Of a stretch of DNA of 40,740 bases, positions 14,594-33,954 are shown piece after piece (position 1 is the stretch's first letter; each line of letters begins with the position of its first letter). The translations under genes and the position numbers were made by a program. The stretch comes from a virus: positions 1 through 40,740 of the IMG/VR virus record IMGVR_UViG_3300022205_000007; one strand, 5' to 3'. The notes under the pieces were generated by a model. That model did not search any database. It was not told where the DNA came from and saw only the letters and a list, made by a program, of their open reading frames with translations.

Positions 14594-15145
14594 CTAATTT
14601 TCAGTTCTCGCGGAAGTTACCGATTGACCACAAGCACCTGAAAAAGCTTTTCTGGTTTCCTGAGCCTCATAAGCATAGCTGTTTCGAGGCTGAACACCGA
14701 TATAAGAGGCTTGTTTAATAGCATCCAACCCAGCGCCCAGAAAAATAACCGTCCACCCGTATTTAGACTCATGCTCTTCAATCAATCTCTTAACTGCCAT
14801 CATCGAATATTCTTTTGAGCAATTTTCTAAACCATCTGTTTGGATAACCAAAATAACCTTCTCTGGTTTTTCTTTAGTAAACCGATTTTTTACATGAGCA
14901 AAGGTTTTACCAATAGCATCATATAATCCGGTCATTCCGCTGGAGCGCCATTTTCTAATATCAGGGGCTGAATTGAGTTTCCCTTCATAATCTACGTGAT
15001 ATTCATTATTAAACCATGCGATGGTTAAATTGGCCTCTCCGATTTCTTTTTGGCCCTTTAAAAATTCATTAAATCCGCTGCATGCCTCTTTGGCCACAAG
15101 TTCCATAGATCCCGATCCGTCTAAAATACAGATTATCTCTTGCAT
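14594..15145 (-). CDS. VWA-domain (von Willebrand factor A) protein
   Basis: The 183-residue protein is a single VWA domain with a complete metal-ion-dependent adhesion site: D9xS11xS13 in ILDGSGSM, T72 in SGMTGLYDAI and D104 in IQTDG. VWA domains mediate Mg-dependent protein contacts, and in bacteria they often pair with MoxR AAA+ ATPases. None is encoded here, so a host partner is possible. GGAAG precedes the ATG. It lies between the two small membrane paralogues. Confidence 0.82.
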   Translation of the reverse strand: MQEIICILDGSGSMELVAKEACSGFNEFLKGQKEIGEANLTIAWFNNEYHVDYEGKLNSAPDIRKWRSSGMTGLYDAIGKTFAHVKNRFTKEKPEKVILVIQTDGLENCSKEYSMMAVKRLIEEHESKYGWTVIFLGAGLDAIKQASYIGVQPRNSYAYEAQETRKAFSGACGQSVTSARTEN

Positions 15146-28228: not shown

Positions 28229-28450
28229 ATGGACGAAATACTCTCAAAACGTGACCTAATCTTTATTAGTGGGTTCAAATCTAACAAAAAAATACAGGAT
28301 TGGTTGATTAAAAACCGCATCCCACATATACTTTCAGGTGAGGGCTTACCCTTGGTTAATCGACAGGCATTGGCTCACATAATGGGAGCGCCGACCGATA
28401 ATCCAATCCCCAAAGTCGACTTAAATTTTGACCAAAAGGGGTTTAACTAA
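28229..28450 (+). CDS. DUF4224-like protein upstream of the integrase
   Basis: The 73-residue protein fits the short DUF4224 outline: ILSKRDLIFISGFKSNKKIQDWLIKNRIPH, then LVNRQALAHIMGA. This family is typically encoded directly before phage integrases and may act as a partner or excision factor. Its gene ends 19 bases before the integrase start. Confidence 0.68.
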   Translation: MDEILSKRDLIFISGFKSNKKIQDWLIKNRIPHILSGEGLPLVNRQALAHIMGAPTDNPIPKVDLNFDQKGFN

Positions 28451-28469
28451 GATAATAGAGGTTAAGATA

Positions 28470-29525
28470 ATGAAAGATAATCTGCTTGTCTATAAAGGCA
28501 AAACAAAAACAACATATTACGCTCAAATGTATGTTAATGGTGTTCGAAAAAAGATCAATTTAGGCCACGATTTACCCGCTGCATTGCTCCAATTACGCGC
28601 ATTAGAAGAAACTAATGGCCGACCTCAAGTGAAAACATTGCGGTCTATCTGGGAGCACTATACCAAATCTGATAAGGGCTTATTAGCCCGACCTATCTCG
28701 ACTCAAAAAGACTACGCCCTATGCTGGAGAATGATCGAGGGAGTAATGGGCGATCTGAAATTAGAAAGCATAAACCCCAGTCATATAAAACAATATCTTG
28801 GCCATCGATCAGCGCCGGTTAGGGCGAATCGTGAAAAGGCATTGATCTCTATATTATTTAATCATGCGCGTAATTATTGCAACTATGACGGTCAAAATCC
28901 CACGTTAGGCATTAAAAGCAATCCCGAAACAGGCCGCACGAAATACGTTGAAAAATGGGAATATGAGCAGATTTACACCTGCGCCGATACCACATTAAAA
29001 AATGTTATGGATTTGCTTTTGTACACCGGTCAACGTGTATCCGATGTCTTGGATTTTAAAGTATCCGACATACGTAAAAATGTCGATTTAACACGGATCA
29101 GAATGTCTAATGGTATTCCTACCTCTGATATCACAGGCAAAGACTTTGCCGATTGCCTGGAGTTATGCACCAACAAAACAGCCAAAAAAATATCTATTGT
29201 CATTGAAGGGGAATTAGAAACAACAATTAATCGCATCATGGAGCAACGAAAAAAACAAGTTATTAATTCAATGTATTTGATTTGCAACCATCACGGACAA
29301 CGGTTATCCCGACACGCCTTAACTGATAAATTCAAACGCGCTCGGGCAAAAGCCGGGTTTAAGCCATATGAAATACAATTACGAGATTTACGCAGTAAAA
29401 ATGCCAGTGACGACACACTGGAAGCGGCCAATACTCGTTTGGCTCATACAACAACCACGATGACAGAACGTTATCGTAACAAAGTACGTAGTGTAACCGT
29501 GCGCCCATTGGATAAACTAATTTAA
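28470..29525 (+). CDS. int: Tyrosine-recombinase integrase
   Basis: I start at the ATG at 28470 (351 residues), preceded by AGAGG. Catalytic residues are visible: R189 in LLYTGQRVSDVL, R308 in RDLRSK, H326 in RLAHTTTTMTERY and Tyr335. The usual HxxR is RxxR here (R305), as in other integrases of this type. The N-terminal SAM-like domain lies at about 55-150. It would insert the phage at attB. The attP site was not proven, although tRNA sequence lies 1.3 kb downstream. Confidence 0.9.
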   Translation: MKDNLLVYKGKTKTTYYAQMYVNGVRKKINLGHDLPAALLQLRALEETNGRPQVKTLRSIWEHYTKSDKGLLARPISTQKDYALCWRMIEGVMGDLKLESINPSHIKQYLGHRSAPVRANREKALISILFNHARNYCNYDGQNPTLGIKSNPETGRTKYVEKWEYEQIYTCADTTLKNVMDLLLYTGQRVSDVLDFKVSDIRKNVDLTRIRMSNGIPTSDITGKDFADCLELCTNKTAKKISIVIEGELETTINRIMEQRKKQVINSMYLICNHHGQRLSRHALTDKFKRARAKAGFKPYEIQLRDLRSKNASDDTLEAANTRLAHTTTTMTERYRNKVRSVTVRPLDKLI

Positions 29526-29534
29526 GGATCACTC

Positions 29535-30728
29535 ATGAATTATGATAAAGCATTGGCTGAATTCGTTGAAAAAATGCCGGGATATAATGATTTACCGGAA
29601 TTTAAAACAGCTTTTTCATTAGGCTATACTAAAGGTATGCAGGAAACACTCGCCTTATTGACAGACAAACTGAATAGTGTGGAGAAACCAGATTCTGAAG
29701 CTTTAAATAAACTAATCCCTATTACATTAATGTTAATGATTGAAACAAAACGGATCATCAAAAGCCTTCCTAAATTACCCATTAGCCTTAGTTATATTCG
29801 GGCTGAAGTGGATGAAACCAATAATATCTTATTAATGATAAACAGTGATGTAAAAGAAGACACAAAACATATAATGGGAGATGTTATCGATGCAATGCTG
29901 AATGGTTTGAGCGAGATAGGGAATAGCACAGTCGTGGACGCTAAAAATCTTAAAATCTTAATTAAGAGGACAAATCAAATGAGTAAATTACACCAATTAT
30001 TAGCGGTTGAATCAGATTTAGATAATGCTCAAACCAAAGTATTAGAAGAAACCACCACTATTTTCGCTAAAAAAGGCCAATTATTCGTAGGCGCAATTAA
30101 AAAACTGGAAGTTTTCGACGAAAATGATACCACCGTTTATCCTGAAGAGCGCTTTGAATTAACCACAACTGTCGATGATCGCCTGGACTATCAAAACAAA
30201 TTTATCATTGATTATTTCGACGCCTTGTTACGAAAAGAAACAACTAATCAAGAGGCTAAAGCGGCCATCAATATTGACGGAAAAGATATTACCGGCGAAC
30301 TACCAGCCACATTTTTATTGGCATTGGAAAAGAAGCTAATTAGGGTTCGATCTGTTTACCTATCCATTCCGACATTACAGCAAGGTATTCGCTGGGAGAT
30401 CGATTCTTCTCTTGGGGAAAACATTTTTCGGGCTAAAGATCCTGAAATTAAATTCAAAACCAAAAAGGTATTTAAACACCAAATATTGGTTGACGCTACA
30501 GAACACCATCCAGCGCAAATAGAAAAATGGGAAGAGCAAGAAAATATCGGTCGTTATATTACCGAAAAATGGTCCGGTTTAATTACCAGTTCACGCAAAG
30601 CGGAATTATTAAAACGTGTGGATAAATTAATTATAGCGGTTAAAAAAGCACGGCAAAAAGCCAATGATATTACGGCAAGTAAAGATAAAGTAGGTGAATT
30701 ATTATTTGATTATATACATAAGAATTGA
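29535..30728 (+). CDS. DUF7873-like protein with N-terminal extension and internal start
   Basis: The 397-residue frame has two parts. Residues 149-397 (MSKLHQLLAVESDLDNAQ..., then SYQN-like FELTTTVDD, DGKDITGELPATFLLALEKKL, WSGLITSSRKAELLKRVDKLIIAVKKARQKAN) match a conserved family I recall as DUF7873, which normally starts at that MSKL. A second ATG at 29979 has AAGAGG before it. The first 148 residues are unrelated and helical. A fusion or a nested second product is likely. Function unknown. Confidence 0.68.
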   Translation: MNYDKALAEFVEKMPGYNDLPEFKTAFSLGYTKGMQETLALLTDKLNSVEKPDSEALNKLIPITLMLMIETKRIIKSLPKLPISLSYIRAEVDETNNILLMINSDVKEDTKHIMGDVIDAMLNGLSEIGNSTVVDAKNLKILIKRTNQMSKLHQLLAVESDLDNAQTKVLEETTTIFAKKGQLFVGAIKKLEVFDENDTTVYPEERFELTTTVDDRLDYQNKFIIDYFDALLRKETTNQEAKAAINIDGKDITGELPATFLLALEKKLIRVRSVYLSIPTLQQGIRWEIDSSLGENIFRAKDPEIKFKTKKVFKHQILVDATEHHPAQIEKWEEQENIGRYITEKWSGLITSSRKAELLKRVDKLIIAVKKARQKANDITASKDKVGELLFDYIHKN

Positions 30729-30824
30729 GTTAGCGTTAGCATTAGTCTTAGATTTAGAATCAGTTTAGTTTATTACTCAATAGTCTTAGTAAAAAAGGAA
30801 AAACAATAATTTAACAATGCATTT

Positions 30825-30917
30825 CTTTTGCGTCACGGGTTCGAGTCCCGTTTAGCCCGCCTAAGTGTATTTTCGAGTATATTTAGGGGGCTAATAGCTC
30901 AGTGGTAGAGCGGAAAG
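30825..30917 (+). ncRNA. Circularly permuted tRNA-like RNA (3' half before 5' half)
   Basis: Bases 30825-30858 form a tRNA 3' half: anticodon-stem strand CTTTT, variable GCGTC, T-arm ACGGG-TTCGAGT-CCCGT and acceptor strand TTAGCCC. Bases 30888-30917 form a 5' half: acceptor GGGCTAA, TA, D-arm GCTC-AGTGGTA-GAGC, G, and stem GAAAG. The acceptor strands pair 7 of 7 and the anticodon strands 5 of 5 (one G-U). Between them 30860-30887 folds into a 12-pair stem (three G-U or U-G wobbles) with a UUCG loop. The anticodon loop is open, so no amino acid can be named. CCA is not encoded. Confidence 0.55.
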
Positions 30918-30961
30918 AGTTTTAGCTTAAAAACATTGGGTAGATTAATAATTCCTTTTTT

Positions 30962-31034
30962 AATGTGTTAGCTCAGTTGGTAGAGCTACGGACAGTTAAT
31001 CCGTTAGGCACAGGTTCAAATCCTGTACACAAAC
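30962..31034 (+). tRNA. tRNA-Asn(GTT)-like gene, degenerate
   Basis: The cloverleaf is complete in the D-arm (GCTC/GAGC), anticodon arm (ACGGA-CAGTTAA-TCCGT) and T-arm (ACAGG-TTCAAAT-CCTGT). The anticodon is GTT. Two features are abnormal: position 33 is A rather than U, and the two outer acceptor pairs are A-A mismatches (AATGTGT against ACACAAA). No CCA is encoded. It is either a decaying tRNA or a tRNA mimic. Confidence 0.6.
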
Positions 31035-33853: not shown

Positions 33854-33870
33854 ATCTCCCTCCTAATGAG

Positions 33871-33954
33871 TGCCGGTAGCAAGATTCGAACTTACACGGC
33901 ATATTTGCCATTAGCACCTAAAGCTAACGTGTCTACCTATTCCACCATACCGGC
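33871..33954 (-). tRNA. tRNA-Leu(TAG)
   Basis: The cloverleaf is complete: acceptor GCCGGTA/TACCGGC, the Leu-type D-arm (GGTGGAATAGGTAGACAC), anticodon stem TTAGC/GCTAA with loop TTTAGGT (anticodon TAG), a long variable arm GGC-AAATAT-GCC, T-arm GTAAG-TTCGAAT-CTTGC and discriminator A. CCA is not encoded. It heads the minus-strand accessory operon. It reads CUA-type codons and could offset codon-usage bias. Confidence 0.92.

What the first reader, a model, noticed from the sequence alone, without database searches (positions are those of the whole stretch)
30825..30917. Circularly permuted tRNA-like RNA closed by a UUCG-capped hairpin
A tRNA 3' half lies upstream of its matching 5' half. The acceptor strands GGGCTAA and TTAGCCC pair 7 of 7, the anticodon-stem strands GAAAG and CTTTT pair 5 of 5 (one wobble), and the D- and T-arms are canonical. 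The 28 bases between the halves form a 12-pair stem with three wobble pairs and a UUCG tetraloop, separated from the acceptor stem by a single unpaired G. Wobbles that keep pairing, plus a UUCG loop, point to a selected RNA rather than debris. Permuted tRNA genes are known in algae and archaea; I know of none in phages. Two alternatives remain: two decayed tandem tRNAs, or an attP remnant (which would explain only the 3' half). How the open anticodon end is used or joined is unknown. The RNA could be a decoy, a primer or a two-piece tRNA like two-piece tmRNA.
Basis: partly seen in the sequence, partly recalled or inferred. Interest (0 to 1): 0.85.

Follow-up and report, generated by a model that had tools for sequence, protein, structure and literature searches.

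The report
Phage Y-RNA-like tRNA mimic
A virus of bacteria carries a small RNA gene whose transcript would fold like a transfer RNA with its two halves swapped; it most resembles a known class of tRNA-imitating RNAs (bacterial Y RNAs, YrlA type) that many other phages also carry, rather than a new kind of transfer-RNA gene.

Summary
At 30825-30917 a tRNA 3' half precedes its matching 5' half: acceptor 7/7, T- and D-arms intact, and a 12-pair UUCG-capped hairpin as linker, the only 12/12 28-mer of that shape in the window. The free 'anticodon' end is not open. It continues into an interrupted basal stem ending in an 11-bp helix (30790-30800 with 30952-30962), next to a normal tRNA-Asn.

This is the architecture of YrlA, the bacterial Y RNA that mimics tRNA as a circular permutation and normally partners the Ro60-like ring protein Rsr. 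Rfam's YrlA model matches end to end but at 36.8 bits, below its cut-off of 69. The same architecture occurs in about 30 other phage contigs found here. Some carry rsr next to the RNA, including a relative of this phage (56% terminase identity). Others carry a DUF2828 Ro60-like protein.

This phage has no detectable Rsr, and the usual Rsr-binding signature is not recognisable. It works like a YrlA tRNA mimic, but full membership is unproven. A spliced, functional permuted tRNA is unlikely. Debris and attP origins do not explain the anatomy. Permuted tRNA mimics in phages are already known; this is a divergent variant.

The parts
30790..30800 (+). 5' strand of outermost basal helix, TAAAAAAGGAA
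   Evidence: pairs 11/11 with 30952-30962
30807..30819 (+). 5' strands of inner basal stem, TAATTTA and CAATG
   Evidence: duplex prediction pairs them with TAGATTA 30941-30947 and CATTG 30934-30938; statistically weak; the global MFE uses an alternative pairing here
30823..30829 (+). 3' strand of anticodon-stem-like helix (stem II of a Y RNA)
   Evidence: TTCTTTT pairs with 30912-30918
30835..30851 (+). T-arm (5-bp stem, TTCGAGT loop)
   Evidence: Rfam YrlA alignment
30852..30858 (+). acceptor 3' strand TTAGCCC
   Evidence: 7/7 Watson-Crick with 30888-30894
30860..30887 (+). acceptor-extending hairpin, 12 bp, UUCG tetraloop
   Evidence: 12/12 pairs, unique in the window; z -6.6 with the acceptor
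30888..30894 (+). acceptor 5' strand GGGCTAA
30897..30911 (+). D-arm GCTCAGTGGTAGAGC
30912..30918 (+). 5' strand of anticodon-stem-like helix
   Evidence: pairs with 30823-30829
30934..30962 (+). 3' strands of the basal stem (CATTG, TAGATTA, TTCCTTTTTTA)
   Evidence: ends where tRNA-Asn begins
30962..31034 (+). normal tRNA-Asn(GTT) directly downstream; its 5' processing could set the RNA's 3' end (inference)
   Evidence: ARAGORN; RF00005 52.1 bits

Best explanation
The element encodes a small noncoding RNA with a YrlA-like (bacterial Y RNA) tRNA-mimic module. T-arm, acceptor stem and D-arm stack as in tRNA. The acceptor is sealed by a UUCG-capped helix, so it has no CCA end and cannot be aminoacylated. 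The anticodon arm is replaced by a basal stem made from the RNA's own two ends. Shown here: the anatomy, its excess over chance, and its recurrence in phages, some with a Ro60-like ring protein. Inferred: the transcript works as a tRNA look-alike, either bound by a host Ro60/Rsr-type protein (steering PNPase or damaged-RNA handling, as known Y RNAs do) or alone as bait for tRNA-binding or tRNA-cutting enzymes during infection.
For: Rfam YrlA aligns over model positions 1-114 at 30810-30929, 36.8 bits. Phage YrlAs close to rsr score 34-39 bits (G030, G031, G036), while contigs without permuted units reach at most 34.7. The architecture recurs: 29 contigs (window included) carry units with 7-pair acceptors outside ARAGORN tRNAs. 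Their flanks, which were not selected for pairing, pair with each other: 17 of 45 at or above the 95th percentile of mismatched pairings, 2.3 expected. Of 22 such contigs, 9 have a TROVE or DUF2828 protein against 3 of 32 tRNA-bearing contigs without units, p=0.008. Terminase relatives of this phage carry Rsr with Y RNAs: G080 (56%) has a YrlA and further Y-RNA-like units upstream of rsr; G011 (39%) has Y-RNA-like hairpins upstream of rsr. Capped acceptors recur: UUCG in L151 and L155, GAAA in L117 and L175, a long extension in L251.
Against: The score is below the family's gathering cut-off (69), and tandem ordinary tRNAs reach 34.7 bits, so the CM score alone does not settle it. No TROVE, no DUF2828 and no match to a phage-Rsr profile in the record; the only vWA protein found is a 183-aa stand-alone domain at 14594-15145. 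The UUAC[U/A] or ACAGCA signature found upstream of 27 of 44 other units is missing. The basal stem is AT-rich and only modestly significant. Only 1 of 48 further terminase relatives has Rsr. No close homologue of the element itself was found, so its own covariation could not be tested. No expression data.
Confidence: 0.72

Rival explanations
1. A true circularly permuted tRNA gene: the precursor is joined through the anticodon side, the linker hairpin is cut out by RNase P and 3' processing, and a functional tRNA results, as in some algae and archaea.
For: Both halves have canonical arms and a 7/7 acceptor; G at 30859 followed by CC resembles a discriminator and a partial CCA.
Against: No anticodon loop can be defined at the join; the termini continue into a basal stem. 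No RNA ligase or RtcB among ORFs over 200 aa. Related units end in capped acceptors (UUCG, GAAA) unsuited to release of a CCA end.
Confidence: 0.07
2. Decayed tandem tRNAs: outer halves of two copies of one tRNA were lost, leaving an inverted order by accident.
For: A normal tRNA-Asn lies immediately downstream, and phage tRNA arrays often decay (general knowledge).
Against: Perfect acceptor pairing, a 12/12 wobble-tolerant UUCG hairpin unique in the window, closing flanks, and the same arrangement in about 30 other phage contigs.
Confidence: 0.1
3. attP remnant: the 3' half is the phage's tRNA attachment core beside the integrase gene.
For: A tyrosine integrase lies at 28428-29525, with one gene between it and the element.
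Against: Explains only the 3' half; not the complementary 5' half, the linker hairpin or the closing stem.
Confidence: 0.05
4. A sub-case that overlaps the best explanation: a tRNA-mimic module of Y-RNA descent that has lost the Ro60 partner and acts alone, as a decoy for anticodon nucleases or other tRNA-binding enzymes.
For: No Ro60-like gene and no recognisable Ro signature. Several other unit-bearing contigs also lack such a gene, e.g. the 233-kb G034. A competitive-inhibitor role for the YrlA tRNA-like domain against an anticodon nuclease has been proposed (PMC7790460).
Against: The host may supply Rsr; the record may be incomplete; the signature may be too divergent to see.
Confidence: 0.3

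Closest known systems
YrlA, bacterial Y RNA (Rfam RF02553; PDB 6CU1)
   Same: Order T-arm, capped acceptor stem, D-arm inside a basal stem of the RNA's own ends; circularly permuted relative to tRNA; known from bacteria and reported for phages.
   Different: Here 36.8 bits (cut-off 69), acceptor extended by a 12-bp UUCG hairpin, no recognisable Rsr-binding signature, no Rsr gene in the record.
Permuted units with extended acceptor in phage contig L251 (reverse-strand offset 6819) and capped units in L151, L155, L117, L175
   Same: Same module; in L251 a hairpin of comparable length extends the acceptor.
   Different: Different flanks; L151, L155 and L117 lie in contigs encoding Rsr.
Permuted tRNA genes of algae and archaea; two-piece tmRNA
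   Same: 3' half upstream of 5' half.
   Different: Those are ligated or processed into functional RNAs with free acceptor ends; no sign of this here.
Permuted units of phage contig L179 (record G034)
   Same: CAATGC..TTTCTT upstream and TTTAGCTT downstream at similar offsets; the three L179 units rank first to third in flank similarity.
   Different: Similarity not significant against shuffled flanks (67 of 500 reach it); no hairpin linker.

Membership tests
YrlA (bacterial Y RNA) | tRNA-mimic module in circularly permuted order | tested here: met
YrlA (bacterial Y RNA) | Score above the Rfam gathering cut-off | tested here: not met
   36.8 of 69 bits; nearly all phage YrlA-like units found here also miss it
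YrlA (bacterial Y RNA) | Basal stem pairing the RNA's 5' and 3' ends | tested here: met
   11-bp helix plus inner pairs; cross-pairing p 0.023, shuffles 9/200; modest support
YrlA (bacterial Y RNA) | Conserved Rsr-binding signature beside the basal stem | tested here: not met
   UUAC[U/A]/ACAGCA signature present in 27 of 44 other units, absent here; an AAUGC motif is present but is weak evidence
YrlA (bacterial Y RNA) | rsr (Ro60/TROVE) gene nearby | tested here: not met
   none in the record; present in relatives G080 and G011; the record may be a fragment
YrlA (bacterial Y RNA) | Binds Rsr and PNPase; carries dihydrouridine and pseudouridine | not testable with these tools
   needs biochemistry
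Permuted tRNA gene | Termini meet so that an anticodon loop can be formed and ligated | tested here: not met
   flanks continue into a basal stem
Permuted tRNA gene | RNA ligase available | tested here: inconclusive
   none recognised in the phage; host unknown
attP in a tRNA gene | 3' half identical to a host tRNA next to the integrase | not testable with these tools
   host not identified (one search gave no useful relative)

The most novel reading that the evidence does not exclude
A phage-encoded stand-alone permuted tRNA mimic that has parted from Ro60: a sealed, extended acceptor and a private basal stem make it a stable tRNA decoy that protects phage or host tRNAs from anticodon nucleases or blocks tRNA-processing enzymes. 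It would belong to a wider, largely unannotated set of permuted tRNA mimics in phages with several different protein partners (TROVE, DUF2828, none).
Probability: 0.25. Interest if true: 0.7.

Novelty: new variant of a known kind. Interest (0 to 1): 0.42.

Why it matters
Y RNAs are known as partners of Ro60, a human autoantigen, and of RNA-repair operons, but their purpose in phages is unclear. A small temperate phage that keeps only the tRNA mimic, with a reinforced acceptor and no Ro60 gene, would separate the mimic's role from the ring protein's. The survey also suggests that tRNA finders miss a sizeable class of permuted tRNA mimics in phage tRNA arrays.

Tried and rejected
Close homologues of the element were sought by exact DNA pattern in IMG/VR, by the DUF7873 protein, by integrase in viral contigs and genomes (one irrelevant 24% match), and by DNA similarity in phages (only ordinary tRNAs); none was found. 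Self-cleaving ribozymes flanking the units of L030 were considered because of a repeated GAAGCGG..GAGTTACTTCA motif; an Rfam scan found no ribozyme and pointed to YrlA instead, and the theta-ribozyme paper mentions no permuted tRNA (PMC10879173). Flank kinship with the L179 units was tested and is not significant. The promoter scan found nothing. L046/L056/L057 looked permuted but their acceptor pairs only 5 of 7, so they were left out. The acceptor pairing of the surveyed units is partly circular evidence, because the detector selects for it; only flanks, linkers and protein partners are independent. The key Y RNA papers (Chen 2014, Sim and Wolin 2018) are not held, and these and Wang 2018 were used only through citing papers and my own knowledge.

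Full report
What is there. At 30825-30917 a tRNA 3' half (T-arm 30835-30851, acceptor strand TTAGCCC 30852-30858) lies upstream of a tRNA 5' half (acceptor GGGCTAA 30888-30894, D-arm 30897-30911). The 28 bases between form a 12-pair hairpin with a TTCG loop, stacked on the acceptor with one unpaired G. Thermodynamic z-scores are -4.7 for the core and -6.6 for acceptor plus linker, with no shuffle as stable. The hairpin is the only 28-mer of this window with 12/12 complementarity. ARAGORN finds a separate normal tRNA-Asn at 30962-31034 and a tRNA-Leu at 33870-33954.

The end that was thought open is closed. Folding 30790-30960 pairs the AAAAAAGGAA stretch with TTCCTTTTT; the full helix is TAAAAAAGGAA/TTCCTTTTTTA. 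A duplex prediction adds TAATTTA/TAGATTA and CAATG/CATTG, next to the UUCUUUU/GGAAAGA helix that takes the place of the anticodon stem. The outer helix scores higher than 97.7% of pairings between mismatched flanks but is AT-rich, and the flank duplex energy is reached by 9 of 200 shuffles. The exact inner pairing of the basal stem differs between predictions.

Context. The record is a 40,740-base IMG/VR virus contig, possibly incomplete. It encodes terminase, portal, RecT, exonucleases, a DnaB-like helicase, a tyrosine integrase (28428-29525), HTH regulators and a tail spike, hence probably a temperate tailed phage. A DUF7873 gene (29535-30728) lies between integrase and element.

What it resembles. 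Rfam's YrlA model (RF02553, bacterial Y RNA) aligns over positions 1-114 at 30810-30929 with 36.8 bits against a cut-off of 69. YrlA is a noncoding RNA with a tRNA-like domain; its basal stem holds the Ro60 orthologue Rsr and it recruits PNPase (review PMC8394870). Its crystal structure superposes on tRNA as a circular permutation (PMC11472068). [quoted passage not shown] From my own knowledge, Chen et al. 2014 reported Y RNAs in more than 250 bacterial and phage species.

Survey. Loose DNA patterns and a detector for T-arm, permuted 7-bp acceptor and D-arm outside ordinary tRNAs found units in 29 contigs, window included, with more in L251 and L246 and G080. Acceptor pairing is selected by the detector, but flank pairing is not: own-flank helices reach the 95th percentile of mismatched pairings in 17 of 45 units. 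An upstream UUAC[U/A] or ACAGCA signature occurs in 27 of 44 other units against about 11 expected from shuffled flanks. The first resembles the Ro-binding region of Y RNAs as I know it.

Protein partners. Among 22 unit-bearing contigs, 6 have TROVE matches over the Pfam cut-off and 3 others have DUF2828; among 32 tRNA-bearing contigs without detected units the numbers are 2 and 1 (three small controls were not searched for DUF2828). Fisher p=0.008 for the union and 0.04 for TROVE alone. In G030, G031 and G036 a YrlA match lies a few tens to a few hundred bases upstream of rsr. In this phage's own lineage, G080 (terminase 56% identical) has rsr with a YrlA and further Y-RNA-like units upstream. 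G011 (39%) has an Rsr-like TROVE+vWA protein with three Y-RNA-like hairpins directly upstream. This is not general: 1 of 48 further relatives has Rsr.

Where the window element departs. No TROVE, DUF2828 or profile match; the vWA protein at 14594-15145 is a lone domain. The Ro signature is absent. The Rfam score does not by itself separate it from tandem tRNAs, which reach 34.7 bits. Its sealed acceptor fits the family: units in L151 and L155 cap the acceptor with UUCG, L117 and L175 with GAAA, and L251 extends it with a hairpin of similar length.

Mechanism. Most likely a stable RNA that presents the tRNA elbow and acceptor helix while being unable to be charged or to decode. With a host Ro60/Rsr it could act as a Y RNA; without one it could bait tRNA-binding or tRNA-cutting enzymes. 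The anatomy and its recurrence are shown; transcription, partner and function are inferred. A functional spliced tRNA is disfavoured, since there is no definable anticodon loop and no recognised RNA ligase. Debris and attP fail to explain the matched acceptor, hairpin and flanks.

Verdict. A real, probably functional RNA of a known kind, in a divergent form. Works like a YrlA: likely. Is a YrlA: unproven, since the Rsr signature and the rsr gene were tested and not found.

Noticed in passing
L029 (reverse strand, offset about 2545-2720) and L246 (+, about 2235-2400): A permuted tRNA mimic seems to sit inside the anticodon loop of another tRNA (outer acceptor GACTTCTA/TAGAAGTC). The inner acceptor differs between the two contigs yet pairs in both (CACCGCT/GGCGGTG 7 of 7; ATCCCCA/CGGGGAT 6 of 7): two tRNA bodies joined at the anticodon stems.
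   Followed up: partly
records G022, G028, G035 (e.g. L236:885-2327, L237:867-2282): Phage contigs with permuted units carrying an upstream ACAGCAA motif encode DUF2828/DUF7788 vWA proteins, two of which weakly match a phage Rsr profile, hinting at a second Ro60-like partner class.
   Followed up: partly
L030 8600-10321 (reverse strand): Three tandem permuted tRNA mimics plus one unit of the same flanking motif without a tRNA module (perhaps a YrlB-like short Y RNA), inside a large tRNA array, with no Rsr found in the contig.
   Followed up: partly
L038, L062, L079, L082 (record G003, 424 kb): A jumbo-phage-sized contig with at least six YrlA-type RNAs, one close to an Rsr-like gene.
   Followed up: partly
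L179 2700-3150 (record G034): Three tandem permuted units sharing a CCAAT[G/A]CTTATTTCTT motif, in a 233-kb contig without TROVE or DUF2828; the partner is unknown.
   Followed up: partly
window 14594-15145 (-): A 183-aa stand-alone vWA-like protein with a DGSGSM metal-site motif (PHROG 7371), function unknown.
   Followed up: partly
window 29535-30728 (+): DUF7873 protein between integrase and the RNA element; distant relatives occur in Vibrio, Rhizobium and Gordonia phages.
   Followed up: no
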